Part shown: piece after piece, positions 40,082-57,716 of the stretch
How positions within the stretch are numbered: the first letter of the stretch is position 1
Layout: every line of letters starts with the position of its first letter
Assembly (NCBI RefSeq): GCF_002003665.1
Contig: NZ_JATM01000006.1
Coordinates: forward strand, 1 to 64,000
Source: Bombella intestini
GTDB lineage: Bacteria > Pseudomonadota > Alphaproteobacteria > Acetobacterales > Acetobacteraceae
DNA length: 64,000 nt
Direction of reading: 5' to 3'
The notes under the pieces: generated by a model
The model's input: the letters and a program-made list of their open reading frames with translations, nothing else
The model's database searches: none
Told to the model about the DNA's origin: nothing
Made by a program: the position numbers and the translations under genes

Positions 40082-40654
40082 TTAGCGTTTCCACTTCCAG
40101 TAGCCGTAAAGGCCGAGGCCGGTATAGCCTGCATACAGCAGGGCCGTAATGGTGAGTGAGCGGTTGAGGAACAGGCCCGTATAAATCACATCAATGGCGG
40201 ACCAGAGCAGCCAGCTTTCCCGGTGACGGCGGGCCGTCCAGAGCTGGGCGAGCAGGCTGGCCCCGCTTAGCCCACCATCTAGCAGAGGGGTTGGGTCATC
40301 ACTCCAGCGTTTCAGGGTTAAAATCCAGAGGATGGAGAGAAGCAGGAAGAAACCTGTTTCCAGTACGGCCCGACTGAGGGGAAGAGGCCGGGCCGGAAGA
40401 GTGTCTGCCGGGATGGTGGGGAGGTGCCCCGTCCCGTTGATGCGTTTTTTCCGTTCCCTAGCCCATAAGGCCCAGCCATAGAGGATGGCGATGCTGAATA
40501 CTCCTTGCAGCACCGTATCCGCATAGAGATGGGCCTGAAAGAATACTGTGCCATAAAACAGCGTTGCCAGCAGGGAAATGGGCCAACCGATCATGCGGCG
40601 TTGTGCTGTTAGCCAGACGCCAGAGGCACTGAGAAGGGCGGCGATCAGTTCCAT
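40082..40654 (-). CDS. pnuT: PnuC-family vitamin transporter, probably thiamine-specific (PnuT)
   Basis: A 190-residue membrane protein of the PnuC family, small facilitators that take up vitamins which are then trapped by phosphorylation. Hydrophobic helices and the family signature LSASGVWLTAQRRMIGWPISLLATLFYGTVFFQAHLYAD near the N-terminus, and WLLWSAIDVIYTGLFLNRSL near the C-terminus, are present. PnuC takes nicotinamide riboside, but here the gene ends an operon headed by a TPP riboswitch, so thiamine or a thiamine precursor is the likely substrate. It starts 4 nt after the kinase gene. Confidence 0.82.
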   Translation of the reverse strand: MELIAALLSASGVWLTAQRRMIGWPISLLATLFYGTVFFQAHLYADTVLQGVFSIAILYGWALWARERKKRINGTGHLPTIPADTLPARPLPLSRAVLETGFFLLLSILWILTLKRWSDDPTPLLDGGLSGASLLAQLWTARRHRESWLLWSAIDVIYTGLFLNRSLTITALLYAGYTGLGLYGYWKWKR

Positions 40655-40658
40655 GAGG

Positions 40659-41783
40659 TCAGCTTTCTTTCAGCAAGGTGAGTAGAGCCTGTCCTCTGGC
40701 GGTATGGAACCATTGGGCATGACCAATGAGATAGTCCCGCCGGGAAACTTCAGCAGCCTCTTTATTGCCCAGGACATCGCTGTAATAGGCGATCTCCGAG
40801 AGGGCGAAGGTAACATGGCAGAGTGGTAGCCAGCAGGCGGTGAGGTGCTTTTCAGCGGTGCTGCGGGGCCGCTGGGCATCATAAGCATGTATGAAGGCCA
40901 GAAGCTGCTCCTCATGCACCGCTGGGGTGCCGTCTGGGTCCAGCCAGTTGATGAAGCTGCGTTCTATGGCGACAGCGAGGTCAAAGGCGGCACTGGTCTG
41001 GTCACACATACCAAAATCAAACGCACGGGCAGCCGTGATGTCTTGTCCTTCTATGCGCCAGAGTAGGTTGGCACCGTGCCAGTCTCCATGTCCCCAGAGT
41101 GGATGATCATCTGGAAGTAGAGGATGCAGGGCCTCATGAAAGGGGGTCAGTAAAGGTAGGATATCCCGTTGTAGTGAGGCAGGTGTGTAGAAGGCGGCTA
41201 GTCCGCTCTGTTCTGCGGCCCACGGGATCAGACTGTCGGCTAGCTTATCACCCAGCAGGGGATGTCGTGCTGAGATGAGTGGAGGATTGTGGCGTGGCGG
41301 TGCTTGATAGGCCTCACTAGCTTGATGCAACTGCGCTAGAAGCGTGCCGCTGGACGCCGCTTGGTGCGTGCTGTGATAAGGCCGCCAAGAATCCAGCCCT
41401 CGATAGGCGTCTTGCTCGGTAAAGAGGGGGAAGGCCTCGTAAGTATAATCAGGTGTGGCGAGAGCTGTCTGTCCATCCAACATGGGTAGAGGGGCAGAGA
41501 CGGGCAGGCCCTGCCTAGCCAGATGGCGAGTGAAGCGGTGTTCTTCTGTCAGTGTATTTGCAGAGCGCAGGGCCTGCCCGTGTCGTTTGAGAAACAACCG
41601 TCCGCCATCGTCCAGTGCTATGATGGCCGAGGAAGAGAAAGGACGGCGGCTGTGCCAGAGCAGCGGATTACGGTCCGGCTGGACGCCCCAGCGTGGCAGA
41701 AGTGTGGTTATGTCTTTGTCTGTCAAATAGGGCCAGACGCAGCCATTATAACCACTCTCCAGACCAAGGGGGCGTGCCGACAT
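40659..41783 (-). CDS. APH-fold phosphotransferase, probable thiamine (vitamer) kinase
   Basis: A 374-residue protein with the aminoglycoside phosphotransferase/choline kinase fold. The catalytic loop HGDWHGANL (232-240) and the metal-binding DFG (256-258) are intact; an LFLKRHG lysine near residue 66 fits the ATP-binding lobe. It sits between a TonB receptor (2-nt gap) and a PnuC-type permease (4-nt gap) in a unit led by a TPP riboswitch. Such an enzyme would trap imported thiamine, or hydroxyethylthiazole-type precursors, by phosphorylation. Homology alone would only say phosphotransferase; the substrate is inferred from context. Confidence 0.78.
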   Translation of the reverse strand: MSARPLGLESGYNGCVWPYLTDKDITTLLPRWGVQPDRNPLLWHSRRPFSSSAIIALDDGGRLFLKRHGQALRSANTLTEEHRFTRHLARQGLPVSAPLPMLDGQTALATPDYTYEAFPLFTEQDAYRGLDSWRPYHSTHQAASSGTLLAQLHQASEAYQAPPRHNPPLISARHPLLGDKLADSLIPWAAEQSGLAAFYTPASLQRDILPLLTPFHEALHPLLPDDHPLWGHGDWHGANLLWRIEGQDITAARAFDFGMCDQTSAAFDLAVAIERSFINWLDPDGTPAVHEEQLLAFIHAYDAQRPRSTAEKHLTACWLPLCHVTFALSEIAYYSDVLGNKEAAEVSRRDYLIGHAQWFHTARGQALLTLLKES

Positions 41784-41785
41784 AC

Positions 41786-44173
41786 TTAGAATCCAGCTGT
41801 CAGGCTAGCGAGGGCGGCGAAGGGGGCACCGATATAATAACCCGGTGCTGATCCGCTAATTCGTGTGCCATGTAGCCCGGTAGTGTCATGTGCGTTCAGA
41901 GCGGTGGAGTTGACGCCAGAGAGATAACGCTGATTGCTGATGTTGCTCAGGTTCAGTCGTAATGTGGGTTGATGAAGGAAGCCCACATTGTTGAAGCGGT
42001 AACCAAGGCTTAGATCGGCCGTCATAATGGAAGGGATACGCTCGTCATTCATGAAGGTAGAATATTGGTGGCTCATGTAATGCATGGTGATCATGCTGAA
42101 GAAGTGTCCATCATCATAGCGTAATCCGGCTCCAACCTGAAAATGGGGGCTACGGATCGCCGTCTTACCTGCTGTTGGTAAGATGTCCCCTCCGGTGGCG
42201 ATATTATTATCAATACTCGTATGGAGATACTCGAAGGACGCATAGGGGCTAATATGATGCCAGGGCCGTGTACCCAGCTCCACATCCACGCCACGGGAGG
42301 TCTGTTTCCCAGCATTGATGGTTGTGATGATGTTGGGGTTGTTCGCTTCGCCTGTTTGTATCTGCCGGTTGCGGAAATTATAGTTGAAGAAGGTCAGGCT
42401 TGCTGTCAGCCAATCCCCCGTGCGGCGGTATCCGAATTCCTCGGCGACTGAATATTCATTCTTCAGGTGGTTGGTCCCGGCCTGACTGATGGCGCCATTG
42501 GCTGCTCCATTCGCATCTACACCAGCATAGCTGTTATAATAGGCAGAGACAGCCGGTGCCCGAAAATTGGTGTTCACATTGAGGAAGATTTGATCCTGTT
42601 TTGTGATGTTCCAGCGTAGGCCGAAGCGGGGGAGGGGTTCTTGCCGGTTGCTGGTAACGTTGCGCTGCGAGCCGGGTACATCGTTCGTTCCCCAGCGGTG
42701 CAGCATGACTTCCTTAAAGCCAATATCCATAGCTAACCTGTCATCCATTAAGGAGATATGGTCGCCAATGTAGAGGGCATTGGCCTGCGACATGGTGTGA
42801 AACGCCCCGGCCAGATAAGGGTTGCCATCTGACATGAGGATGCGGTTGCGTCTTTTGTCGGCCCAGATGTTGGTAGCAGAGCCATCATCACCCACGCTCG
42901 TGAAGGGCTGACGCTCATTATCATCGGAGTAGTCGTACCAGTAGCCCATGACGAAATCATTCCATTTGTAATGGGCATGGAAGGCCATGTTCACACCGGC
43001 CCGATAACTGCGCTGGGTGTAATCAGCCCGGACGGTCTGGCCGTCTTTAACGGGTAGGGAGGCTACGGGTTGGGAGCCGTAATAATTCCCCGTGCTGGAG
43101 AGCGTGGAACCATAGGGGAAGTTGCCGTAGGCACTCTGGGCATAAGGGGTGATGTCGAAGGAAAAACGCTGGTTGAAGCGCAAATGCACCGGTGCGCCGA
43201 CATAGAGCGTTTCTTCTGGGTCGCGGGCAAGACGCCAGTAGTTGGTGCTGTTTTCACCGGGCTGGAAATGCTGGGTTAGCTTGCCGCTATGGGTGCCGTA
43301 GGTTTTCCAGTCCGCAAGGGAGGTAAAGGGGTAATAGCTGGTATCGGCTTTGTTCCATGACCCCAGAAGGCTGGCATGGCTTCCTTGTCCCCATTCTTTG
43401 AGAAGCCTGAAGTCGATGTGCTGACGGGTGTCGTACCCTCCGCTGCGCCAGTTGTCCGCATGAGTGTTGGAATAGGAGACAAACCCTCTTACACCGCTAT
43501 GGCCTATTTCACCTGTTTCCAGCCGGATGAAGCCACGCCTTGTATTGAAGGCCCCATAAGAGAAGGAGGCAAAGCCGCCGGGCTTTAGGGCGGGGTCAAG
43601 AAAGGAGAGTTTCATCAGCCCGCCTGCGGCGTTGAGGACGGGGCTGTCCAAATCGGCTGATCCCTGCTGGAGGCCGATCTTGCTGTAATTTTCTGTATCG
43701 GCAAACTGGTTGGGGTAGCCATTGTAGGCGGCAATGTCGTTAAGGGGCATTCCCTCCAGCACATAGCCCAGCGCATCGCCATTTAGGCCACGCACGCTGA
43801 TGTTGGTGTTAGGCGAAATTCCGAACGGGTCGGATGTCATGACATTAGCACCCGGCAGGATGGAGACGAGCTGAAAGGCCGAGGCCATAGGGGCCTGAAT
43901 GTCCATGTAGCTGCGGCCCACCTCACTGATGGACTGCGTACCATGCTGGGGGCGGATCAGCCCGCCGCCACGTTGGACAACCTCCGGGGTGGCACGGGTG
44001 GTGATGTATTCCACCTGTTTGGCCTGCATGGCGTGGGGTGCCTGATGTTCGGCAGGGTGGTGGGGCGTGGCGGATTTGTGGGCCTGCTTCTCGGAGGTTG
44101 CAAGTGCCCAGCCGGGGCTACAAAGAAGCAGAAAGAAAGGAGCTGTTTTTCTACCGGAGAAAAATGAACGCAT
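41786..44173 (-). CDS. TonB-dependent outer-membrane receptor, probably for thiamine vitamers
   Basis: The 795 residues comprise a signal peptide (about 1-25), a plug domain (about 75-200, with ISPNTNISVRGLNGDALGYVLEGMPLND) and a 22-strand barrel ending in a C-terminal phenylalanine (AALASLTAGF), as required for outer-membrane insertion. The barrel sequence is of the siderophore/vitamin-receptor type. Its leader holds a TPP riboswitch, and the two genes downstream look like a permease and a kinase, so the ligand is most likely thiamine or a related compound rather than iron. Confidence 0.88.
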   Translation of the reverse strand: MRSFFSGRKTAPFFLLLCSPGWALATSEKQAHKSATPHHPAEHQAPHAMQAKQVEYITTRATPEVVQRGGGLIRPQHGTQSISEVGRSYMDIQAPMASAFQLVSILPGANVMTSDPFGISPNTNISVRGLNGDALGYVLEGMPLNDIAAYNGYPNQFADTENYSKIGLQQGSADLDSPVLNAAGGLMKLSFLDPALKPGGFASFSYGAFNTRRGFIRLETGEIGHSGVRGFVSYSNTHADNWRSGGYDTRQHIDFRLLKEWGQGSHASLLGSWNKADTSYYPFTSLADWKTYGTHSGKLTQHFQPGENSTNYWRLARDPEETLYVGAPVHLRFNQRFSFDITPYAQSAYGNFPYGSTLSSTGNYYGSQPVASLPVKDGQTVRADYTQRSYRAGVNMAFHAHYKWNDFVMGYWYDYSDDNERQPFTSVGDDGSATNIWADKRRNRILMSDGNPYLAGAFHTMSQANALYIGDHISLMDDRLAMDIGFKEVMLHRWGTNDVPGSQRNVTSNRQEPLPRFGLRWNITKQDQIFLNVNTNFRAPAVSAYYNSYAGVDANGAANGAISQAGTNHLKNEYSVAEEFGYRRTGDWLTASLTFFNYNFRNRQIQTGEANNPNIITTINAGKQTSRGVDVELGTRPWHHISPYASFEYLHTSIDNNIATGGDILPTAGKTAIRSPHFQVGAGLRYDDGHFFSMITMHYMSHQYSTFMNDERIPSIMTADLSLGYRFNNVGFLHQPTLRLNLSNISNQRYLSGVNSTALNAHDTTGLHGTRISGSAPGYYIGAPFAALASLTAGF

Positions 44174-45201: not shown

Positions 45202-46845
45202 TTGTTTAGGGCTTGCTGGCGGTATTTCAGGCTGATGTTAGTCTCCATGCCCCGGCGACGGCGGCATGAGGGAGTAAGTCCTGTCTGTCTTTATCAAGAC
45301 AGGGAGGAAGGCGATGTAGATCAGGGTGCCCTGCTGACAGGGGGCGTATTTCGCTTCGGCCAGAAGACCTACAGCCTGCCCTTGCGTGGTGTCTGGCAGA
45401 CTAATAGCTGGCCGGATGATGTCCGCCGCTGGTTCTATGGCTTCGATTGGTTGCGGGATCTGCGGACGCTCGGGACGAATGGGGCTCGGCTTTTAGCCCG
45501 GTCTATGGTGGCCTCATGGGCGGATCGCCCGCCAACTGACTCGGTCGCACGGGAAAGTGGCGTGATGGGGCGGCGGCTGGCTAATTGGTTGGGGCATTAT
45601 GAATTTTGCCTCTCCACCGCCACGGAGGGGACACAGCAGCTGGTTTTGGATGCCGCCGTGCGGGAGGCTCGTCGCCTTTCAGCTATGTTGCCTCTGCCGC
45701 CCACGGGGTGGGAAGGGCTGGTCGCCTTGCGGGGGCTGCTGGCTGTTTATATGGCTGTGCCGTATTATGATGGTTTCTTCAAACGGTTTGAGCAGCAACT
45801 TCCGCTGGAATTAAAGCGTCTGATGGGTGAAGACGGCATTACCGCCGAGCGCAGCCCGGAGGCACAGTACCGGTGCGTGCAGGAGCTGACAGCCATTCAG
45901 GGTATGTTCAGCACCTTGCAATGGATGCCGCCGGATTGTGTGCCGGTGATGTTAGGCCGTGCCTGTGCTGTATTGCGGGCGTTTTGTCATGGTGATGGCG
46001 GGTTAGCCCTGTTCAATGGCTCGCAGGAGCGTGGCGCAAAAGCTGTGCAAGACCTGCTGGAACAGGCAGAACGCTATAGGGTTGTTGCGTCTAGCATCAG
46101 CAAAGGTGGGTTTGCTCGTCTGACAGCAGGGCGGGCATTGTTGCTGGTGGATGCCGCCGCTCCGCCCTCTGCTGGGATGGATCGTCTGGCTCATGCCGGG
46201 ACATTGTCTTTTGAATTTTCCCATTATCGGCAGCGGTTGTTTGTCAATTGCGGTGCAGCGGAGGGGGGCGCTTGGCAGCGGGCCCTCCGTGGTTCTGCCG
46301 CCCATACGATTCTGGTTGTGGATGGGGAATCTTCGTCTGATTTTGGGGAGGATGGCCATGTGACCCGCCGCCCCTCACAGGTGCGCTACGAAGAGAAACG
46401 ACAGGGCCGCACGCAAGAACTGCACTTATCACATAATGGATATTATCCATCTTATGGGGTCATCTGGTTCCGTTCCCTGTTTCTGGCTCCGTCTGGTGAG
46501 GAACTCAGAGGGCAAGAGGTGGTGGAAGGTGAGCGGGATGTGCCCTTTACGTTGAGGTTTCACATTCATCCCGATGTCCGTGTGGAGCGGGAGGATGATG
46601 AGATTCTACTCCATGCCCCGTCAGAGATATGGCGTTTCCATCAGGTGGGTGGTGTGCTGGCTCTAGAAGAAGACCTGTATATGGGCCGTGGTGTGCCAGA
46701 GCAGACATCCCAGATCATTGTTCAGTCTCTACCGGGCCGGACTGTGCCAGTGGTGGGGGGTGCAGCCGATGCTAGTAACAGGGCCACAAAGCCCCCCAAA
46801 CGCCAGCAGAGGGTGGAATGGGTGCTGGAGTATGTGCCTCTTTAG
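45202..46845 (+). CDS. Heparinase II/III family protein
   Basis: The 547 residues show an N-terminal helical toroid and a C-terminal beta-sandwich of the heparinase II/III family, usual for the gene next to rpe or purH in alphaproteobacteria. Recognisable are FGFDWLRDLR-type and ANWLGHYEFCLS segments, MLPLPPTGWEGLVALRGLL and the C-terminal HTILVVDGESSSDFG with DVRVEREDDEILL. It probably acts on envelope or extracellular glycans; the true substrate is unknown. The start is a TTG with GGGGA 7 nt upstream; in-frame ATGs at 45235 and 45247 are alternatives. Its stop codon overlaps that of the converging GIY-YIG gene. Confidence 0.83.
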   Translation: MFRACWRYFRLMLVSMPRRRRHEGVSPVCLYQDREEGDVDQGALLTGGVFRFGQKTYSLPLRGVWQTNSWPDDVRRWFYGFDWLRDLRTLGTNGARLLARSMVASWADRPPTDSVARESGVMGRRLANWLGHYEFCLSTATEGTQQLVLDAAVREARRLSAMLPLPPTGWEGLVALRGLLAVYMAVPYYDGFFKRFEQQLPLELKRLMGEDGITAERSPEAQYRCVQELTAIQGMFSTLQWMPPDCVPVMLGRACAVLRAFCHGDGGLALFNGSQERGAKAVQDLLEQAERYRVVASSISKGGFARLTAGRALLLVDAAAPPSAGMDRLAHAGTLSFEFSHYRQRLFVNCGAAEGGAWQRALRGSAAHTILVVDGESSSDFGEDGHVTRRPSQVRYEEKRQGRTQELHLSHNGYYPSYGVIWFRSLFLAPSGEELRGQEVVEGERDVPFTLRFHIHPDVRVEREDDEILLHAPSEIWRFHQVGGVLALEEDLYMGRGVPEQTSQIIVQSLPGRTVPVVGGAADASNRATKPPKRQQRVEWVLEYVPL

Positions 46846-48068
46846 AGGGATTGCTGGGGTGTATTCTTGCGGATGATGGTCTTCTGGTGGGGGTCATACT
46901 CGTAAAGGTGGAGTGTGCCTTCCTGTATGAGGTGGGCTGCCTGACCAATCAGGGCAGCGGGTAGCAGGAACCATTCCTGGGGGTAGATCAGCTTCCCCAT
47001 ACGGTCATGGACGTGCAGTTTCGCCCGTGAGGGAGCGAAAAAGCGATGAAGGCAGTCTTCCACCTTGCGATAGGAGAGATTGACCAGCGTATAGGTGGCC
47101 ACAATATCCACCGGTGCCATGAGGAAGGTAGGGTCATTGCGGGCATCGGCAACCCGGCGGCGAACATCACCGCTGGTGACACCAATCTTATAAAGTTCTC
47201 CACGTAGTTTACGGATGGCCGGAATATCGGAGAGAGAGCGGGCAACATAAATGGTACCGGTGGCGTTGGTGATAGTTTCGCTACCGGCGAGTGGCCCAAG
47301 GCCGATGCGGGATATGAGGCGGGCTGTCTTATCTTCTGTTAAGGACTTGCGGAAGGACGACATAAGCGGGTCACTTTCCGTCCCATTGGAGAAGATAATG
47401 CGCAGGCGATGTTCTCGGTCGCCGTGGCGATAGGTCTTTTCATATTTCTCGGCGACATAGGCAATGAGACCATTACGGATGAAGAAGTCGCCTTCCGCAG
47501 GTTCAAGAATCTGGTTCTTCTTTATACGCTTTGCTTTGCGGGTGCCGTTGGCTATTTCCTGCTGCACAGCCTCGAACAGGGCCTCATAATCTTGAAAATT
47601 GGCGCAGGGCGTGATGAAGGCTTGATGCTCTGGCACGGCCCGTTCCGCAGCAGGGCTGGAGTGCCGGAGTGTGAAGAGGCTGTCATCTATGTCCAGGCTA
47701 TCATCATTGAGGATATCATCCAGTGATTGGGGGATATCCGTAAAGGCCTGTTCATCCCGCCAGTCGGGTAGGGTTGGGGAGGGGGGGGTGGACTCGGCAA
47801 GTAGCCCCAGCTTGTCAGCCTCCTTCATGGCTGGGGATGGGGTTTGCGCCATACGAGTCCATGCCGCTGCAAGGCACATTTCGTCGTGATCTTCTGCCTT
47901 GTTATCTGGGAACCTGCCGTGCTCTTCGTAAAAACGGCTCACCTGTTCTAGAAGATCCAACTCTGTTTTGCGGGTACCTCGCCCCTGTTGAGATGGTGAG
48001 GCATCGTCCATAAGTAGGCCGAGTTCGTCATCCTCAGCGAAAATATCTTCCAGTGTGAGGCGTTTCAT
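46842..48068 (-). CDS. GIY-YIG nuclease (T5orf172/MUG113 type) of a restriction-like cassette
   Basis: The 408 residues have an acidic, probably flexible N-terminal region (1-150), an unrecognised middle domain (about 155-260) and a C-terminal GIY-YIG nuclease domain (about 268-380). Visible are GTIYVARS (271-278), LYKIGVT (292-298), the arginine cluster RRR (303-305), a glutamate in YRKVEDCLHRFF (E337) and EWF (365-367), the pattern of the T5orf172/MUG113 branch. The ATG at 48068 is 4 nt after the helicase stop; a 22-residue upstream extension inside the helicase is rejected. It would be the DNA-cutting subunit for the methyltransferase and helicase encoded upstream. Confidence 0.85.
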   Translation of the reverse strand: MKRLTLEDIFAEDDELGLLMDDASPSQQGRGTRKTELDLLEQVSRFYEEHGRFPDNKAEDHDEMCLAAAWTRMAQTPSPAMKEADKLGLLAESTPPSPTLPDWRDEQAFTDIPQSLDDILNDDSLDIDDSLFTLRHSSPAAERAVPEHQAFITPCANFQDYEALFEAVQQEIANGTRKAKRIKKNQILEPAEGDFFIRNGLIAYVAEKYEKTYRHGDREHRLRIIFSNGTESDPLMSSFRKSLTEDKTARLISRIGLGPLAGSETITNATGTIYVARSLSDIPAIRKLRGELYKIGVTSGDVRRRVADARNDPTFLMAPVDIVATYTLVNLSYRKVEDCLHRFFAPSRAKLHVHDRMGKLIYPQEWFLLPAALIGQAAHLIQEGTLHLYEYDPHQKTIIRKNTPQQSL

Positions 48069-48072
48069 AGGG

Positions 48073-50151
48073 TTAGTCCTGCCGCTGGCGTGCTTTGGCT
48101 TTGGCTTTGCTAAGATAAAGCCGTACGATAGCAAGGCGTTGTTCTAGTTCGTCGGGTGAATGGGGGTCGGGGTGGCGACCTTCCTGTAAGCAGAAGGCCC
48201 GGAAACGGGGCCAGAGGATTAGAGCTTCCTCATCTGTCATGGGGTAATTCTGGGCGGTGAAAGCGGTCTTGATCTGCGCTAGCAGGGGGGCGTCCATATC
48301 ACGGGAGATGATCTCAAACCGTTCCTGAAAACAGTTGACGCTGTCGATCAGCTCCATGTCGATATCTTTTACATTGATGAGCCGCCTGACGAGGCTGAGC
48401 AACGTGTTAGGCGCACTGGCTGTCTTTTCGTCCTCTGTGGTGGGGCTTGGGCCAATGTCGGGTGAAGGCCTGTTCTCATCGGGGGTGGGTGGAGTGATGT
48501 CTTCCTCCGGGAGGGTTTGCCGGGCCAATGTGGAAAGATTGATGCGAGCAGAAAGCTGTTGCCGGACAGATTCCGTCTCATCTTTTGTTAGGTCGGGGTA
48601 GCGTTTCTCGATGATGCCAGTCAGCATGGGCTGGTTGAGGACTTCCGGGGCTGTGCTGGGGTTTAGGGCACGGCTGGACATGTGTTGATGGGTGGTAGCG
48701 ACGAGGTCGTTCATGTCCCGTTCGCAGATGTCACGGGCCCGCTGGGTTGGGGGTTCATCAAGATTGTGGATGCCAATGGTGACATGCCCCTGTGCATCCG
48801 TGCTGACAGGCGCACGGATATCGCTATCCTCCCGCCTGTAGAACTTGAAGTTGGGTGCCAGAACCTGCTCCATGAGTAGAGAGCCTGAAATGGCCTTGAG
48901 CATGTCATTTACGGCATCCTGCACGGCCTGTGTTTCCACTCCCGGCTCGGCGACCAGATTGGTAAAGACAGCCCGTGTTTTGGCGGGTGCGTCCCGTGTG
49001 GCTCGGCCGATAATCTGGACGATCTCCGTCAGGGAGGAGCGGTAGCCTATGGTCAGGGCATGTTCGCACCAGACCCAGTCAAACCCTTCCTTAGCCATGC
49101 CGAGGGCGATGATGATGTCCACCTTGGCCCGGTCGGCTTCGTCATCCCGTTTGCCATCTGGCCCGGTGATGGTTTTGGCAAGGCTGGCCTTGATGAGGTC
49201 CCGGTTGGGGCCATCATCCACAAGGTCAGCCACTTTGAGCAGCTGGCCATCAGGCCGGCGGACCAGATCAAACCCGGTTTCTGGGTCCCGTCTCTCAATC
49301 GTGCCGATGAGGTCGATGATCTGCCCGACCTCATTATATTTATCGTCAAAGGCCTCGGATGACCCACGGTGCGGAATATGGATGATGGTCTTACGTGTGG
49401 GGTCCAGAACATCCTTTAGCCCGTTGATGTAGGTCCCTTTATAGAACTCGTAGGAGATGCCCAGTTTCTTGAGGAACTCATACCCCTCTAGCTGTTCGTA
49501 ATAGCTGTAGGTAATGGGGGTGAAGCGGCTTTCATCTTCCGGGCGGAGAACGGGGATGGAATCCCCTCGGAAGTAGCTGCCCGTCATCGCCATGAGGTGG
49601 CAGCGGTCCCGGCTCAGCAATTCCCGCAGGATGAAGCCGAGGCGGTTATTATCCCCCGCTGAGACATGATGAAACTCATCCACAGCGATGAAGCAGGAAT
49701 CGAAACGCTCCACACCATCTTGTGCGATGACGGCATCATACCCAAAGCGGAAGGTAGCATGGGTGCAGACGAGCACCTGCGCCTTGTCATCCTGTAGAAA
49801 ATCTTGAAAAGCCCGCACCTTGCGGGGGGAGCTTTCGTCACTGTCGAGGCAGAGATTCCAGCGGTCTTCCACCACCCAGTCACATTCAAAACCGGGGAGG
49901 GATGTACTGCGGAAGGAGCCGCCGATGGAGGTCTCCGGCACGCAGATGATGGTTTTTTCCACGTGCTGATGGCGCATCTTGTCCAGCGCGACGAACATGA
50001 GGGCACGGCTTTTCCCGGCGGCGGGCGGGGCCTTGAGGAGAATATGCTGGGCCTGCCGAACATTATAGACACGCTCCTGCATGGGGCGCATCCCCTGTGC
50101 GTTGGTGCCTGCCTTGCTATGGCCATAGGTCATGGTGAGCATGTTTGCCAT
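48073..50151 (-). CDS. SF2 DEAD/DEAH-box helicase of a restriction-like cassette
   Basis: A 692-residue superfamily 2 helicase/translocase. Walker A APPAAGKS (41-48), Walker B VDEFHH (157-162), motif III MTGS (189-192) and motif VI QIIGRATRD (379-387) are intact. The C-terminal 250 residues are not recognised and include a Pro/Thr/Ser-rich linker (about 560-590) before a helical end domain. The DEFHH box resembles restriction-type translocases such as the HsdR motor, but no nuclease motif is seen in this protein. The ATG at 50151 is 4 nt after the methyltransferase stop; a 56-residue upstream extension is rejected. It likely moves along DNA with the methyltransferase as the recognition subunit. 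Confidence 0.87.
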   Translation of the reverse strand: MANMLTMTYGHSKAGTNAQGMRPMQERVYNVRQAQHILLKAPPAAGKSRALMFVALDKMRHQHVEKTIICVPETSIGGSFRSTSLPGFECDWVVEDRWNLCLDSDESSPRKVRAFQDFLQDDKAQVLVCTHATFRFGYDAVIAQDGVERFDSCFIAVDEFHHVSAGDNNRLGFILRELLSRDRCHLMAMTGSYFRGDSIPVLRPEDESRFTPITYSYYEQLEGYEFLKKLGISYEFYKGTYINGLKDVLDPTRKTIIHIPHRGSSEAFDDKYNEVGQIIDLIGTIERRDPETGFDLVRRPDGQLLKVADLVDDGPNRDLIKASLAKTITGPDGKRDDEADRAKVDIIIALGMAKEGFDWVWCEHALTIGYRSSLTEIVQIIGRATRDAPAKTRAVFTNLVAEPGVETQAVQDAVNDMLKAISGSLLMEQVLAPNFKFYRREDSDIRAPVSTDAQGHVTIGIHNLDEPPTQRARDICERDMNDLVATTHQHMSSRALNPSTAPEVLNQPMLTGIIEKRYPDLTKDETESVRQQLSARINLSTLARQTLPEEDITPPTPDENRPSPDIGPSPTTEDEKTASAPNTLLSLVRRLINVKDIDMELIDSVNCFQERFEIISRDMDAPLLAQIKTAFTAQNYPMTDEEALILWPRFRAFCLQEGRHPDPHSPDELEQRLAIVRLYLSKAKAKARQRQD

Positions 50152-50155
50152 CGGG

Positions 50156-52909
50156 TCAGCCCTCCTGCTTTTTTGTTGTGGAGCGTTTTTTGCGGGCAGT
50201 CTGTTTCTTCCGGCTTTGTGCCACACGGGCAGCATAGCGGCGGAAGAGATGTTCAAGCCGCTGTGTATCGTTAGTGAAGGGCTGGCCCTTGTTATACAGC
50301 CCCTCCAGCAGGGCATCATTGGCCTGATGGGCCTCCCAGAGATCGGCAGGCATTTTGTCCGGGTCGTACAGTTCGGCCAGAGACTTGTCGAAATAGGACG
50401 CCCGTACCCGCATGATCGCCCGCCCGGACTGCTTCAGGGCCTCTTTGTCTGCCTCCGTGAGGGCAGGCACGGGGAAGGTGTGCCAGCCGAGCGTGTTGGA
50501 ATAGCGGAAGTCTGTTTTCAGTTTGCCGCAGATTGAGGCCGCCCATGCCAGATGGAGGCGGGAAACCAGAAGGGCAAAGCACCATTCCGGCGCATCATAG
50601 AGGACGAAGTTGAGGTTGGAGGAAATTGTGTCAGACTTGACCCGTATGGTCGGAAGATAGGGGCGGCGTTCCGAGCTGACACTGGGAATGAGGTAGGCGT
50701 GGTTTTGTGGGGCGTCATGCTCCCTGAACTGCCAAGGGCGGTCCAGCAGTTTGGGATTTTTTTGAGCTTCTTTGATTTTAAATGTACGAGCTTCAAGAGT
50801 GGCATCTATGCGATCCGCAATAAGGCTGATCGATTTGGCTTCTTCAATATCTCTATCATCAATCCAGAGGCAATAACGCTCAAGGTCGTTGATTGCTTCT
50901 TTAGACCCCATGAAACGCCGGATGAAGGGCGCAGCCTGTGGGGTCTGTTGCAGGAGCTTGTCCTTCTCTTCTGGTGAGAGGATGAGATGGCCGTTATCAA
51001 CGGGCATGTTGCCTTTTACCATTTCAGGAAGGCCGAAGAGGCTTTTGCTAGCTTTTTCTACGAAGACATCCGGAGCATCGAGCAGATAGGCATTGATGTT
51101 TGTGGCCTGATGCTCCGTCTCCCCGGTGAAGAGGCGTTTTAGTATTGTTGTGGTCTTGGTTTCCGGGCGGTTTCTCAACCCGACAATGATGCAGATGACA
51201 GCGGCATTATGGCTGGCATTATTGCGCCATTTAAAGGAGGTATGGGCGAAGCTGATTTCTAACGCTTCTCCCAACAAATCGGGCCAGAGAGCATTGACGG
51301 CTTGCCCCTGGCAGAGCGAGTTGGTGGAAACTAGAGCGGCCTCTGCCTGTCGTCCCTGAATATAGCGGGCAGCTTTGAAGAACCATGCTGCCACATAGTC
51401 CAGCCCCTTATAGTTTTTTACGGAGCCGGAGAAGGTGATGGCCATGTCGGCTTTCTGCTCTGCATTCTGGTAGTTCGAACCCAGAAACGGCGGATTGCCG
51501 ATGATGTACACCAGCTCACCATCCCCCGGTGGCGGGCAGACGGCCTCCCAGTCGAGCCGCAGCGCATTACCGCAGACAATATGGGCGGCCTCCCGCAGTG
51601 GCAGGGGGGCAATGGCCCGGCCAAAACGCTCGGCAAAGAGGGCATTGGCCTGATATTCCGCAATGAACAGGGCCAGCTTGGCCGTTTCTACGGCAAAATC
51701 GGCACATTCTATGCCATGAAAATTGGCAATCGGGATGGTAGAAAATAGCTCCATCGTGTTATTGCCGTTCAGCGTGGCCAGCCGTTGCAGGATGGTCATT
51801 TCCAGCTCTCGCAGCTGGCGATAGGCAATGACAAGAAAATTCCCGGAGCCACAGGCGGGGTCAAAAATATGGATATGACCGAGCTTATGCAGGAGTTTCT
51901 GTAGGGCTGCGGGTTTGTCCCAGTCCTTCTGGATCTCGCTGCGCAGACCATCCAGAAAAAGAGGGTCGATGACTTTGCGGATATTGGGGACGGATGTGTA
52001 ATGCATCCCCAGTTCGGCCCGGATGCCCGTATCCGCAACAGATTGGATCATGGAGCCGAAAATATCGGGGTTGATGTCCTTCCAGTCCAGCGCGCAGGCA
52101 TCTTTCAGGTAACGGAAGGCCGTAACATCAAAGGTTGGTATGGTGATGTCACCAGCAAATAGCCCGCCATTGACGTATTCCAGCGGGGCTGTCCAGTCCG
52201 GCAGGTGGCTGCGTTCATCTTTCGGCAGGTTCATGGCTTCAAACCCGGCCTGAAGGACAGTGTGCAGGGCCTCGCCTTCTTTCCCGCCATAGTCCAGCAC
52301 CATGCGGCTGAACTGGTCTTTAGGGAAGATGCCGACATCCTCGGAGAATAGGCAGAAGATCAGCCGCATCATGAACTGGTTCATAATGTGTGTATGGCTG
52401 GGGTTCTTCCACTCCGGATTATGCCGGATGAGGGCATCATAGAGCTTGGCCAGCTTGCCCGTTGCCTGCACGTCAACGGGGTTTTCCTCTACGGCCCGGT
52501 AACGCTCCTTACCAGCAGCGGGGAGGAAGAAGCCAAAATGTTTGGCCATTTCATCCAACTGGCAATGCAGGCTCTCCCCGCTGGCAGGGTGAAAAGCGGC
52601 CAGCATGGTACCATCTGTTGTGAGGAGAATGGCCGGCTTTGCCTGCTTGTTGCGGGGCGAGGCCTTCAACTGGTCCAAAACGGCATCAACTGTCGCCTGT
52701 TTCGTTCCCCCCGCAGGGGCAAAGTGGAAGCGGCGGCTTAGCAGCACGCCACCGGGGAGGTCGGAACGGTTGGTCGCACCTTTGCGGAGCTTATCTACGG
52801 TTGCTTTTGCGGCGTCCGTAGCGAGTGCAAAGTCGTAGGGAAATATACTGCCATCAAAGGGCTGAGATGCGAGGTCCGAGAGAGCATCATAGATTTCGGT
52901 CGGATTCAT
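50156..52909 (-). CDS. MmeI-like class I DNA adenine methyltransferase of a restriction-like cassette
   Basis: The 917 residues have the size and layout of type IIL/MmeI-like enzymes: an N-terminal domain (1-140), a helical spacer (about 150-345, with HYTSVPNIRKVIDPLF at 303-318), an N6-adenine methylase core with SAM motif DPACGSGNF (350-358) and catalytic GNPPF (471-475), and a probable target-recognition domain (about 600-830). The tail is strongly basic. The PD-ExK nuclease motif of MmeI is not visible in the N-terminal domain, so this protein probably methylates and recognises but does not cut. It is the first gene of the cassette, with downstream genes each 4 nt apart. Confidence 0.87.
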   Translation of the reverse strand: MNPTEIYDALSDLASQPFDGSIFPYDFALATDAAKATVDKLRKGATNRSDLPGGVLLSRRFHFAPAGGTKQATVDAVLDQLKASPRNKQAKPAILLTTDGTMLAAFHPASGESLHCQLDEMAKHFGFFLPAAGKERYRAVEENPVDVQATGKLAKLYDALIRHNPEWKNPSHTHIMNQFMMRLIFCLFSEDVGIFPKDQFSRMVLDYGGKEGEALHTVLQAGFEAMNLPKDERSHLPDWTAPLEYVNGGLFAGDITIPTFDVTAFRYLKDACALDWKDINPDIFGSMIQSVADTGIRAELGMHYTSVPNIRKVIDPLFLDGLRSEIQKDWDKPAALQKLLHKLGHIHIFDPACGSGNFLVIAYRQLRELEMTILQRLATLNGNNTMELFSTIPIANFHGIECADFAVETAKLALFIAEYQANALFAERFGRAIAPLPLREAAHIVCGNALRLDWEAVCPPPGDGELVYIIGNPPFLGSNYQNAEQKADMAITFSGSVKNYKGLDYVAAWFFKAARYIQGRQAEAALVSTNSLCQGQAVNALWPDLLGEALEISFAHTSFKWRNNASHNAAVICIIVGLRNRPETKTTTILKRLFTGETEHQATNINAYLLDAPDVFVEKASKSLFGLPEMVKGNMPVDNGHLILSPEEKDKLLQQTPQAAPFIRRFMGSKEAINDLERYCLWIDDRDIEEAKSISLIADRIDATLEARTFKIKEAQKNPKLLDRPWQFREHDAPQNHAYLIPSVSSERRPYLPTIRVKSDTISSNLNFVLYDAPEWCFALLVSRLHLAWAASICGKLKTDFRYSNTLGWHTFPVPALTEADKEALKQSGRAIMRVRASYFDKSLAELYDPDKMPADLWEAHQANDALLEGLYNKGQPFTNDTQRLEHLFRRYAARVAQSRKKQTARKKRSTTKKQEG

Positions 52910-52991
52910 AGCATCAGTCCTTTAGTAAGAATAAGGAAGAAGCGAATCACATACCGTCAGTTTTGTCCAGATACGCTACTGCATAGCATGT

Positions 52992-53022
52992 AGTCGGAGA
53001 GGGCGGTAATGCCTCTCCGACT
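52992..53022 (-). terminator. Hairpin past tyrS
   Basis: Perfect 11-bp stem AGTCGGAGAGG (52992-53002) with CCTCTCCGACT (53012-53022), 14 nt past the tyrS stop and before the restriction-like cassette. No T-run follows, so it may be a structured 3' end rather than a classical terminator. Confidence 0.55.
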
Positions 53023-53035
53023 GTATAACGTGACT

Positions 53036-55351: not shown

Positions 55352-56560
55352 ATGATTCAGGAGGCGGCTTTGCGGCAGAGTCCTGTCTATCTCGATGCTA
55401 ATGCAACCGAGCCCCTGCGCCCTGCTGCTCGGGAGGCTGTATTAGCCGGGTTGGAGCAGACAGGGAATCCGGCGTCTGTTCATGCGGCAGGGCGTAAGGC
55501 CCGTATCATGCTGGAAGAAGCCCGCAAGCAGATGGCTGTAGCGTTTGGCAGAGAGGCTGACTGCTGCGTTTTTACATCGGGGGGAACAGAGGCGGATACG
55601 CTTGCCCTGCATGGTTTTGGGCGTGCGGAAGGCCGTGCCATTCTCATCGGTGCTACCGAGCATGATGCCATCCGTAAAGCCGCCCCTGATGCTGCCCTTA
55701 TCCCAGTAGATGGGCAAGGTGTGATTGATTGCACGGCATTAGAAGAGATGCTGGCGACCCGTACCGCCGGGGAGGGAGTACAGCGTGGGCCATTGGTCTG
55801 CATTATGGCCGCTAATAATGAGACGGGGGTATATGCGCCTTTGCAGGATGTGGCCGCCCTTTGCCGCCGCTATGGTGCGTTTCTTCATGTGGACGCTGTA
55901 CAGGCTGCTGGCCGGATGCGGGAACGGGATGAGTTCTCACAGGCTTTGAAGGATGGTTCGCTGGCCGGGGCTAGTTTAGCCCTGTCCGCCCATAAGATGG
56001 GTGGCCCCAAAGGGGCGGGGGCTTTGATTCTGCCAGAAGATAGGCCTCTATCCCCTCTGTTGCCCGGTGGTGGGCAGGAGAGGGGACGGCGGGGCGGTAC
56101 GCCAGCTCTTGCCCTGCATAAAGGCATGGTCGCCGCCTTTGAGGAAAGCCAAAAGCAAGATTGGGCCATGTTGGAATCCCTCCGGGATGAACTGGAGTCC
56201 ATCATGGCGCAAGCCGGAGCCCTCATCATGGGGCGCGGTGTGGCCCGCTTGCTCAATACCATCAGTGCTGTTCTTCCCGGTGTAACGGCCCAGATGCAGC
56301 TGATGGCGTTGGATATTGAAGGGTATTGCGTGTCTGCTGGTTCGGCTTGTTCGTCTGGCAAAGTGTCTCGGTCTCATGTGCTGGAAGCCATGGGGCAGGG
56401 GGAGGCCGCCGGACAGGCCATTCGTGTATCTTTGCCGTGGAATGTGAGGGCTGAGGATGTCAGGACATTTGGGCACGCTTATGCACGTATGGCACAGCGT
56501 TTTGCTGAACGTGGCTTGTTGAAAAGGCCTGCTTCCTTGGGAGGAGTAGATGATCGGTAA
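55352..56560 (+). CDS. Cysteine desulfurase (first of a tandem pair)
   Basis: A PLP enzyme that takes sulfur from cysteine as a persulfide for Fe-S clusters and tRNA thiolation. The 402 residues show VYLDANATEPLRPAAREA, FTSGGTEADTLAL, the PLP lysine in LSAHKMGGPKG near residue 210 and a reactive cysteine in SAGSACSSGKVSRSHVLEAMG near residue 328. All catalytic residues are present. Compared with its neighbour it is more divergent (ANATEP instead of the usual NATT). It overlaps the next gene by 11 nt. Confidence 0.9.
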   Translation: MIQEAALRQSPVYLDANATEPLRPAAREAVLAGLEQTGNPASVHAAGRKARIMLEEARKQMAVAFGREADCCVFTSGGTEADTLALHGFGRAEGRAILIGATEHDAIRKAAPDAALIPVDGQGVIDCTALEEMLATRTAGEGVQRGPLVCIMAANNETGVYAPLQDVAALCRRYGAFLHVDAVQAAGRMRERDEFSQALKDGSLAGASLALSAHKMGGPKGAGALILPEDRPLSPLLPGGGQERGRRGGTPALALHKGMVAAFEESQKQDWAMLESLRDELESIMAQAGALIMGRGVARLLNTISAVLPGVTAQMQLMALDIEGYCVSAGSACSSGKVSRSHVLEAMGQGEAAGQAIRVSLPWNVRAEDVRTFGHAYARMAQRFAERGLLKRPASLGGVDDR

Positions 56561-57716
56561 GGGGCAGTGTCCGTCTGATGGGGTGATCTATTTGGACTAT
56601 CTCGCCACAACCCCTTGTGACCCCGCTGTGGTGGAGGCGATGCTACCGTGGTTTATGCAGCATCCTGCCAATGAGGGGAGTCTGCATGTGCCGGGGCGGC
56701 GGGCAGAAGAAGCTGTGGAGCAGGCCAGAGCAGAGCTTGCCGCAGCACTTCACGTTAGTCCGCAAGAACTGATTTGGACCTCCGGAGCCACAGAATCCAA
56801 CAATCTGGCTATTAAGGGGGCGGTTCGTTTTCTGAAAGAACAGGGTGATAAGCGGAGGCGCATCATCACCGTGGCAACGGAACATAAATGCGTGCTGGAG
56901 AGTGTTCGCTCTCTGGCGGATGAAGGGTTCGAACCCGTCATCCTGCCCGTGGAGCCGGATGGTCGCTTGTCGCCTGATTGTCTGGAAGATGCTTTGAAGA
57001 CGCCCGCCCTGCTGGTCAGCATCATGGCGGCGAATAATGAGACGGGCGTGGTACAAGACCTTGCCTCTCTCATACCGCTGGTAAAGCAGGCTGGTGCTCT
57101 ACTGCACGTGGATATGGCCCAGATGTTCGGTAAGCTGCCTTGTATGTTGGAGGGAGTCGATCTCGCTTCAGTCTCGGCACATAAGATATATGGTCCCAAG
57201 GGGATTGGTGCCTTGTATGTCCGGCGGCGGCCCCGTGTGCGGCTTGCCCCCCTGTTTTCTGGCGGAGGGCAGGAGCGTGGCATGCGCTCTGGCACGTTGC
57301 CTGTGCCGCTGATTGTCGGCATGGGGACGGCTGCCCGCCTCGCCGTGGAGACACAGCTTGCGGAGGCAGACCGTCTTGCGGGCTTGCGGGATAGGCTGTG
57401 GCAGGGTATGCGGCAGCTGTTCCCGGTGGTGTATCTTAATGGTGCACCGGCCCCACGGCTGCCGGGCGTCTTGAACATATGCCTGCCCGCTGGGCTGGAA
57501 GCACGGCAAGCTCTGGCCCTTGTGCCGGGGGTTGCTTTTTCATCAGGTTCGGCCTGTTCGGCAGCATCCGGGGCCCCGTCCTACGTTCTGAAAGCGATGG
57601 GGTTGACGGATGCAGAGGCACGCAGGAGCTTGCGCCTGTCGGTAGGACGTTTTACCTCGGCAGGTGATGTGGAGTGCGCAGTGGCCCGTTTTGGGCAGGG
57701 CTTTGCCGGGCGGTAA
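56550..57716 (+). CDS. iscS: Cysteine desulfurase (second of a tandem pair, IscS-like)
   Basis: The 388 residues carry [45 protein letters not shown], the PLP lysine in [20 protein letters not shown] near residue 210 and the active cysteine in [21 protein letters not shown] near residue 332, closest to IscS. A GGAGGAG site precedes the ATG inside the end of the upstream gene. The ferredoxin and mnmA genes that follow suggest it feeds Fe-S assembly and tRNA 2-thiouridine. No iscR, iscU or sufBCD gene is in the window. Confidence 0.9.

What the first reader, a model, noticed from the sequence alone, without database searches (positions are those of the whole stretch)
46842..52909. Three-gene restriction-like cassette: nuclease-less MmeI-like methyltransferase, SF2 helicase, GIY-YIG nuclease
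Seen: three genes on one strand, each starting 4 nt after the previous stop. The methyltransferase keeps the SAM and NPPF motifs but shows no PD-ExK site; the helicase keeps Walker A, DEFHH and motif VI; the nuclease keeps the GIY and YIG cores, the Arg cluster and a Glu. Known: type ISP and type IIL enzymes combine nuclease, translocase and methylase functions in one polypeptide. Inference: this is the same logic split into three subunits, with a GIY-YIG cutter in place of PD-ExK, probably phage or plasmid restriction that follows methylation status. I cannot match it to a named defence system from memory.
Basis: partly seen in the sequence, partly recalled or inferred. Interest (0 to 1): 0.75.

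Follow-up and report, generated by a model that had tools for sequence, protein, structure and literature searches.

The report
Known-type three-gene restriction cassette
A bacterium related to honeybee-associated Bombella carries three neighbouring genes (a DNA-marking enzyme, a DNA motor and a DNA cutter) that most likely act together to destroy unmarked foreign DNA; this gene trio was described in print years ago, so the find is a good new example rather than a new system.

Summary
In detail: three minus-strand genes, 4 nt apart, encode a nuclease-less MmeI-like methyltransferase (50156-52909), an SF2 helicase (48073-50151) and a GIY-YIG-superfamily nuclease (46842-48068). The trio is a real unit: 76 of 80 related loci keep the three in order, and in 289 sampled genomes of the class all 16 helicases have the nuclease downstream and an MTase or MTase piece upstream. 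It is not new: Blow et al. 2016 (PMC4752239, passages) describe this architecture as OspHL35III with 'several hundred members in REBASE', and B. subtilis dnmA-yeeB-yeeC is a published example. Best reading: an ATP-dependent restriction-modification cassette, under purifying selection here (dN/dS 0.10-0.17), present in 5 of 11 genomes of the genus at one chromosomal site, with empty sites in sisters. Extra regularities found: inserts between MTase and helicase genes in 39 of 133 loci, none of 138 at the next junction (embedded toxins are known for other R-M operons); an MTase specificity block that diverges independently; a helical module shared by helicase and nuclease; a predicted motif NRNGmAG.

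The parts
50156..52909 (-). MmeI-like DNA adenine methyltransferase with target recognition domain, lacking the PD-ExK catalytic residues (917 aa)
   Evidence: translation; five MmeI Pfam domains; MmeI 5hr4 E 3.8e-151; D-x9-ExK present in 9 of 9 fetched stand-alone relatives, absent here
48073..50151 (-). SF2 helicase-like ATPase, presumed DNA translocase (692 aa)
   Evidence: motifs I, II, III, VI conserved in 27 aligned sequences; sub-threshold Pfam DEAD/ResIII/Helicase_C
46842..48068 (-). GIY-YIG superfamily (MUG113/T5orf172) nuclease with a helical N-terminal module and a middle beta domain (408 aa)
   Evidence: MUG113 5.8e-10, T5orf172 1.1e-7; Y274, R305, E337 invariant in 51; model m4397d2300115
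48085..48231 (-). C-terminal helical module of the helicase (about residues 641-689), homologous to the N-terminal module of the nuclease
   Evidence: hhalign probability 88.8 against 0.1-0.5 for four control pairs; nuclease-module profile finds 22 helicase ORFs at E<=1e-3, the reverse profile only 2 nuclease ORFs
47823..47969 (-). N-terminal helical module of the nuclease (about residues 34-82), partner of the module above
50510..51562 (-). Specificity block of the MTase (about residues 450-800: NPPF half of the catalytic domain plus TRD) whose divergence is uncoupled from helicase and nuclease
   Evidence: sliding-window distance correlation, 39 loci
46840..53031 (.). Stretch present here and replaced by 97 bases in a sister genome (L093)

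Best explanation
It is a three-subunit, ATP-dependent restriction-modification cassette of the OspHL35III / DnmA-YeeB-YeeC kind. Shown here from sequence: the parts, their intact motifs, their inheritance as one unit, purifying selection on all three genes, and absence of the single-chain enzyme's own nuclease residues. Inferred: the MTase-TRD subunit finds an asymmetric six-base site (predicted 5'-NRNGmAG-3') and methylates the adenine of one strand of host DNA. On DNA with unmethylated sites the helicase subunit is recruited by, or in complex with, the MTase and moves along DNA, carrying or meeting the GIY-YIG nuclease, which has one active site. A double-strand break probably needs two complexes, most likely at head-to-head unmethylated sites; this would spare freshly replicated host DNA, in which one site of every head-to-head pair stays methylated.
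For: Architecture and motifs. Synteny: 76 of 80 loci, two of them with a partial or split gene; 16 of 16 helicases in 289 genomes with nuclease downstream and MTase or MTase piece upstream; 7 of 7 plasmid loci looked at, including Bacillota, Actinomycetota and Cyanobacteriota. Of the 10 other MmeI-like MTase matches in the same 289 genomes I fetched 9: all 9 keep [IV]D-x9-ExK and none has the helicase or nuclease in the fetched stretch, so absence of the built-in nuclease goes with presence of the partners. dN/dS 0.10-0.17 for each gene in three same-genus comparisons. The specificity block diverges independently of the rest, as expected for an enzyme under pressure to change targets. Head-to-head logic: proposed for MmeI (PMC3874165, passages); convergence of two translocating enzymes is stated for type ISP (PMC7049714, start of abstract in search listing). 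Literature: same architecture named a Type IIG-like R-M system; per PMC9973331 deletion of dnmA and yeeB homologues in Vibrio crassostreae raised sensitivity to some phage subclades.
Against: No restriction, methylation or ATPase activity was measured. In B. subtilis neither plasmid transformation (dnmA deletion) nor three phages (single deletions) showed an effect, and the authors call the cluster a relic. In Vibrio some phage subclades were unaffected. The helicase falls below Pfam cut-offs and the nuclease has KIG, not YIG. Neither model gave a PDB fold match at E<=0.001. The translocation and head-to-head steps are analogy only.
Confidence: 0.75

Rival explanations
1. Orphan methyltransferase with a dead restriction module: only the methylation is used, for gene regulation, and helicase and nuclease are relics, as proposed for B. 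subtilis.
For: B. subtilis deletions show no phage or transformation phenotype while DnmA methylates and alters expression.
Against: In this genus helicase and nuclease are about as constrained as the MTase (dN/dS 0.10-0.17; three comparisons), the catalytic motifs are intact, only 5 of 11 genomes have the cassette, and the specificity block is not conserved across the family, which fits poorly with a fixed regulatory mark.
Confidence: 0.12
2. Non-cleaving exclusion: the helicase complex blocks phage DNA replication in BREX or DISARM fashion and the GIY-YIG protein is structural or regulatory.
For: The MTase also matches DISARM DrmMI (1.1e-35) and BREX PglX (4.6e-7) profiles.
Against: The helicase matches BREX/DISARM-type models only marginally (BrxHI 13 bits) and the ten neighbouring proteins scanned with Pfam are metabolic; nuclease residues Y274, R305 and E337 are invariant in 51 sequences.
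Confidence: 0.08
3. The three genes are independent neighbours.
For: None found.
Against: Synteny in 76 of 80 loci and 16 of 16 helicases; helicase and nuclease distances correlate at 0.97 over 27 and over 39 loci.
Confidence: 0.01
4. The complex attacks modified phage DNA or senses damage, with the MTase acting as a reader rather than a self-marker.
For: Not excluded by sequence; other genes, some of them toxins, are inserted in the operon of relatives.
Against: The MTase motifs are kept in 27 aligned sequences (FDPACGSGNF in 26, LDPACGSGNF in 1; GNPPF in 16, GNPPY in 11), and DnmA is an active methylase.
Confidence: 0.04

Closest known systems
OspHL35III-type Type IIG-like R-M system (Blow et al. 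2016, PMC4752239, S4 Fig legend, part C)
   Same: MmeI-like MTase/TRD lacking the endonuclease motif, separate translocase, separate GIY-YIG endonuclease; three proteins
dnmA-yeeB-yeeC of Bacillus subtilis (PMC9973331, PMC7261158)
   Same: Same gene order and domain types; m6A at an asymmetric site GACGmAG, which fits the pattern NRNGmAG predicted for the window's MTase
   Different: B. subtilis copy reported inactive in restriction; sequences could not be fetched for a direct comparison
MmeI / type IIL enzymes
   Same: MTase, spacer, TRD and C-terminal domains (508 bits over residues 117-897 of the window's MTase)
   Different: MmeI is one chain with its own PD-ExK nuclease; here those residues are absent and two partner proteins are present
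Type ISP enzymes (LlaGI and relatives)
   Same: MTase, target recognition, SF2 motor and nuclease functions in one system
   Different: Single chain with an Mrr-family nuclease (PMC4666363, start of abstract in search listing)
CglI
   Same: Separate endonuclease and helicase-like ATPase subunits, asymmetric site, NTP-dependent cleavage
   Different: CglI is an R2H2 complex of endonuclease and helicase (PMC5737866 abstract), with no MmeI-like MTase-TRD described there; that its nuclease is PLD-type is recalled
DrdVI-like systems
   Same: GIY-YIG endonuclease with a translocase and methyltransferases
   Different: Translocase and endonuclease are fused in one protein (PMC4996451, one passage)

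Membership tests
OspHL35III-type three-protein Type IIG-like R-M | MTase with MmeI methylase/specificity domains but no N-terminal endonuclease motif | tested here: met
OspHL35III-type three-protein Type IIG-like R-M | Separate translocase protein | tested here: met
   SF2 motifs conserved in 27 sequences; translocation itself not testable
OspHL35III-type three-protein Type IIG-like R-M | Separate GIY-YIG family endonuclease | tested here: met
   Pfam MUG113/T5orf172 over cut-off, which belong to the GIY-YIG clan (recalled); catalytic residues. No PDB fold match at E<=0.001
OspHL35III-type three-protein Type IIG-like R-M | m6A methylation and restriction activity | not testable with these tools
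   needs long-read methylation calls and phage assays
DnmA-YeeB-YeeC | Gene order MTase, helicase, T5orf172 protein | tested here: met
   against the description
DnmA-YeeB-YeeC | Sequence orthology to the B. subtilis proteins | tested here: inconclusive
Type IIL (MmeI) single-chain enzyme | PD-ExK nuclease in the same chain | tested here: not met
   no D-x9-ExK here; 9 of 9 fetched stand-alone relatives have it
Type ISP | Nuclease, motor, MTase and TRD in one polypeptide | tested here: not met
   three ORFs
BREX | PglZ and BrxC components | tested here: not met
   not among the three proteins or the ten neighbours scanned with Pfam; the rest of the window was not scanned
PADLOC model REase_MTase_IIG (PDLC03598) | Restriction enzyme and methyltransferase in one protein | tested here: not met
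   model matches (917 bits here; 945-1007 in three other trio MTases) but scores four nuclease-bearing relatives higher (1098-1228 bits)

The most novel reading that the evidence does not exclude
This kind of cassette is a modular defence chassis: a fixed motor-nuclease pair joined through a shared helical module, an MTase whose residues about 450-800 are exchanged as a specificity block, and one plug-in slot, only between the MTase and helicase genes, that takes back-up toxins or anti-phage genes which fire when the restriction arm is blocked, as PrrC is described to do inside a type Ic system (PMC3710099, passages).
Probability: 0.3. Interest if true: 0.5.

Novelty: new member of a known kind. 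Interest (0 to 1): 0.28.

Why it matters
It places a widespread but little-studied restriction type in a Bombella-related genus, at one clean chromosomal site with natural cassette-free sister genomes, so restriction could be tested in a natural plus/minus set. One PADLOC 2.0.0 model scores best both for nuclease-bearing single-chain enzymes and for these nuclease-less MTases, so the trio would tend to be labelled as a single-protein type IIG enzyme and its helicase and nuclease overlooked. The insert slot and the independently diverging specificity block give testable leads on how such systems collect extra defences and change targets.

Tried and rejected
Degenerate PD-ExK domain: the N-terminal region (175-residue alignment A4) of trio MTases aligns with that of stand-alone MmeI-like enzymes (hhalign probability 92.6), but the half that would carry the catalytic strands alone gives 3.5, and the model (mean pLDDT 88.9) has no PDB match at E<=0.001 (best 0.029). 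So the catalytic residues are absent; whether the fold is a dead nuclease is open.

N-terminal domain as a dedicated docking domain: its distances correlate with the helicase (0.83 in a 26-locus subset) better than the catalytic domain's do (0.69), but a sliding window shows that all of residues 1-440 is coupled and only about 450-800 is not, so I dropped the claim that the first 165 residues alone are the dock.

Nuclease fold: pTM only 0.39 with low-confidence linkers; Foldseek gave no PDB match at E<=0.001, the best (0.0023) being eIF5A/EF-P-like proteins. The Pfam profiles carry the GIY-YIG assignment; the PDB sequence searches gave no useful match for nuclease or helicase.

Shared module: the nuclease-module profile finds 22 helicase ORFs and 1 unclassified ORF at E<=1e-3, but the reverse (helicase-module) profile finds only 2 nuclease ORFs at that level, 31 at E<=0.1. 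I keep it as likely, not proven.

Pattern hits: 4 of 95 trio MTases contain some D-x(8-16)-E-x-K string in the N-terminal part (L053, L054, L055, L110); three are at residue about 102-106 and one at about 52 with a 16-residue spacer; judged chance.

Counts dropped or qualified: one search kept the best 80 of 122 helicase loci. Of the 80, L051 and L063 are short contigs that lack one partner, and L056 and L057 carry truncated helicases without the full set; L035 and L047 are counted as trios although a gene is partial or split. One search examined 147 loci (80 genome contigs, 7 plasmids, 17 genome stretches, 43 viral-collection contigs), found a helicase in 145, an MTase or piece upstream in 133 and a nuclease downstream in 138; these are not independent (ten loci share one cargo family; L148 and L172 look near-identical). 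Zymomonas paper PMC8432527 was read in passages and is about other systems. PMC12839542 holds none of the terms GIY-YIG, T5orf172, MmeI, YeeC or DnmA.

Full report
What is there. The window lies in a 2.02 Mb genome in 12 contigs close to Bombella favorum (helicase 99% identical). On the minus strand three ORFs follow each other: an MTase (52909-50156), a helicase (50151-48073) and a nuclease (48068-46842), each starting 4 nt after the previous stop. The MTase has all five MmeI Pfam domains and aligns with the MmeI structure's sequence (5hr4) over residues 117-897. The helicase keeps motifs I, II, III and VI, invariant or nearly so in 27 aligned sequences. The nuclease belongs to MUG113/T5orf172; G271, Y274, R305, E337 and H341 are invariant in 51 aligned sequences, but the second core motif reads KIG rather than YIG. 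The predicted elements of residues 270-343 (strand, short helix, strand, helix with R305, strand, helix with E337) fit a GIY-YIG core as I recall it.

Is it a unit? Of the best 80 of 122 helicase-related loci from genome contigs, 76 have all three genes in the same order and strand, two of them (L035, L047) with a partial or split gene. In a sample of 289 genomes of the class there are 16 helicases in 15 genomes; all 16 have the nuclease directly downstream, and all 16 have an MTase or an MTase piece upstream (the G180 and G244 MTases are cut by contig ends, the G052 MTase has an internal stop). The nuclease profile gave 19 matches: 16 in these trios, two pieces of one degraded remnant (G079) and one fragment with a stop (G301). 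The MTase profile gave 28 matches: 16 in trios, two pieces from G079, and 10 others. I fetched 9 of those 10 (not G041): 9 of 9 carry [IV]D-x9-ExK near the N-terminus and 0 of 9 have a helicase or nuclease of this family in the fetched 3.8-14 kb. So within the MmeI-like family the built-in nuclease and the two partner genes replace one another. Among 95 trio MTases, 91 have no D-x(8-16)-E-x-K string in the N-terminal part. Seven of seven plasmid loci viewed carry the trio, in Alphaproteobacteria, Bacillota, Actinomycetota and Cyanobacteriota. Forty-three contigs labelled viral hold the helicase; 39 of 43 show the nuclease and 33 of 43 an MTase or piece, most of the gaps being at contig ends.

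Where it sits and whether it is alive. Of 11 genomes of the genus, 5 have the MTase next to tyrS; in 4 others the heparinase-like gene directly follows tyrS; one (L099) has about 1 kb between them, not examined, and one (L100) could not be judged because the fetched stretch ends. In L093 the 6.2 kb between window 46840 and 53031 is replaced by 97 bases. NG86 dN/dS against three same-genus loci is 0.12-0.13 for the MTase, 0.10-0.14 for the helicase and 0.12-0.17 for the nuclease, against 0.02-0.06 for tyrS. That is purifying selection on all three genes, weaker than on tyrS, and it argues against a relic here.

How it most likely works. Residues that read bases in MmeI (PMC4833311, section read) were mapped through the alignment: L766 at the A774 position and R802 at R810 (rule: G at position 4), K798/D800 at E806/R808 (rule: G at position 6), K632/M635 at Y642/K645 (the MmeI double mutant with these residues reads R at position 2). 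Positions 1 and 3 could not be read from the rules I saw. The prediction is 5'-NRNGmAG-3'. DnmA's published GACGmAG fits this pattern, which is encouraging but not proof. These positions vary across the 96 trio MTases aligned (for example K at the 806 position in 55 and E in 23). Methylation of one strand leaves a replication problem; the head-to-head solution is proposed for MmeI in PMC3874165 (passages), and convergence of two translocating enzymes is stated for type ISP in PMC7049714 (start of abstract in a search listing). I infer the same here: MTase finds sites, helicase moves, GIY-YIG nuclease nicks, two complexes make a break. Only the parts, not these steps, are shown.

Three further regularities. 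(1) Helicase and nuclease share a helical module: hhalign between the helicase C-terminus and the nuclease N-terminus gives probability 88.8, four control pairings 0.1-0.5; a profile of the nuclease module finds 22 helicase ORFs and 1 other ORF at E<=1e-3 among 8795 ORFs, while the reverse profile finds only 2 nuclease ORFs. It sits at the abutting ends of neighbouring genes and may be a common dock. (2) Sliding-window distances over 39 non-redundant loci show MTase residues 1-440 and 800-916 coupled to helicase and nuclease, and residues about 450-800 much less so (r -0.04 to 0.14 in a 26-locus subset; 0.26 to 0.54 over all 39), as if the specificity half is exchanged by recombination; rapid divergence without exchange is not excluded. 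(3) Between MTase and helicase genes 39 of 133 loci have an insert of at least 250 bp; between helicase and nuclease 0 of 138. The inserts hold 54 ORFs of at least 80 aa in 27 sequence clusters. Of the 30 I scanned against PADLOC, 16 match a model at E<=1e-5: PD-T4-5-like (about 45 bits), RhuM (PDC-S05), DarT, DarG, SoFic, PDC-S42, PDC-S22, PDC-S26, PDC-S02 and PDC-S15; 14 do not. Among those 14, Pfam names a zeta toxin, a RelB antitoxin, pentapeptide repeats and a CoiA N-terminal domain. One plasmid is annotated with an addiction-module and RelE/ParE pair there. The window's own cassette has no cargo.

How new are these? Toxin genes embedded in R-M operons are described for other R-M types: PMC3710099 (passages) reports PrrC, Abi2-type HEPN, RhuM-like and Doc genes in R-M neighbourhoods, and PMC12629846 (passages) reports second systems embedded in type I R-M loci and cites a 2024 preprint by Payne et al., not held. 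For the present trio I did not find the slot described in searches, which were aimed at embedded genes; searches were aimed at the system or its mechanism, and none was aimed at (1), (2) or the motif. The library holds only open-licence papers. Because embedding is known in principle, I lowered the interest of the bold reading from 0.6 to 0.5 after this check.

What is known. Blow et al. 2016 (PMC4752239; passages) name OspHL35III as the prototype of several hundred REBASE members with a nuclease-less MmeI-like MTase, a separate translocase and a GIY-YIG endonuclease: the same architecture. PMC9973331 (passages and reference list) reports that dnmA homologues are commonly followed by yeeB and yeeC homologues, found no phage protection in B. 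subtilis for three phages, and cites Vibrio crassostreae deletions that raised sensitivity to some phages (the published study was asked for by a recalled DOI and is not held). PMC7261158 (passages) says Morgan et al. 2009 had noted nuclease-less MmeI homologues flanked by yeeB- and yeeC-like genes and that a Type I-like system had been suggested (Morgan 2009 not held). The window's cassette therefore belongs to a described kind; direct comparison with the B. subtilis proteins was not possible. PADLOC 2.0.0 scores both forms best with one model (PDLC03598): the window's MTase 917 bits, three other trio MTases 945-1007, four nuclease-bearing relatives 1098-1228. Helicase and nuclease have only marginal matches (18-19 bits).

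Verdict. Observation confirmed; interpretation right in kind, wrong about novelty. Interest is low to moderate, resting mainly on the insert slot, the mosaic MTase and the clean presence/absence polymorphism.

Noticed in passing
L006, L070, L074, L076, L079, L105, L108, L109, L114, L148, L158, L162, L175 and others (between MTase and helicase genes): In relatives the junction between MTase and helicase genes repeatedly holds co-directional toxin or candidate anti-phage genes (39 of 133 loci with an insert), while the helicase-nuclease junction holds no insert of 250 bp or more in 138 loci.
   Followed up: partly
window 46840-53031; L093, L096, L097, L098: Cassette present in 5 of 11 genomes of the genus at one site; four sister genomes have the heparinase-like gene directly beside tyrS.
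   Followed up: yes
L095 and L094 (G003, G007): Over the first 456 residues MTase identity to the window is higher in G003 (94.1%) than in G007 (91.9%) although tyrS ranks them the other way (93.5% and 96.2%), hinting at transfer or recombination of the cassette within the genus.
   Followed up: no
L120 (G079), L047, L056, L057: Degraded copies: one remnant lacks the helicase, others have split or truncated genes; described only.
   Followed up: no
Acinetobacter records: 74 Acinetobacter plasmid-collection records match the helicase; in the ones listed it is split or partial, one beside an IS30-type transposase.
   Followed up: no
L099: About 1 kb between tyrS and the heparinase-like gene where four sister genomes have almost nothing, so the site may take other insertions.
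   Followed up: no
window 55352-57716: Two adjacent genes that look like cysteine desulfurases (first one scanned: PF00266 1.7e-40); they cross-match at about 34% in part.
   Followed up: no
window 40082-44173: A TonB-dependent receptor, an APH-family phosphotransferase-fold protein and an NMN-type transporter in a row, perhaps a vitamin or nucleoside uptake cluster.
   Followed up: no
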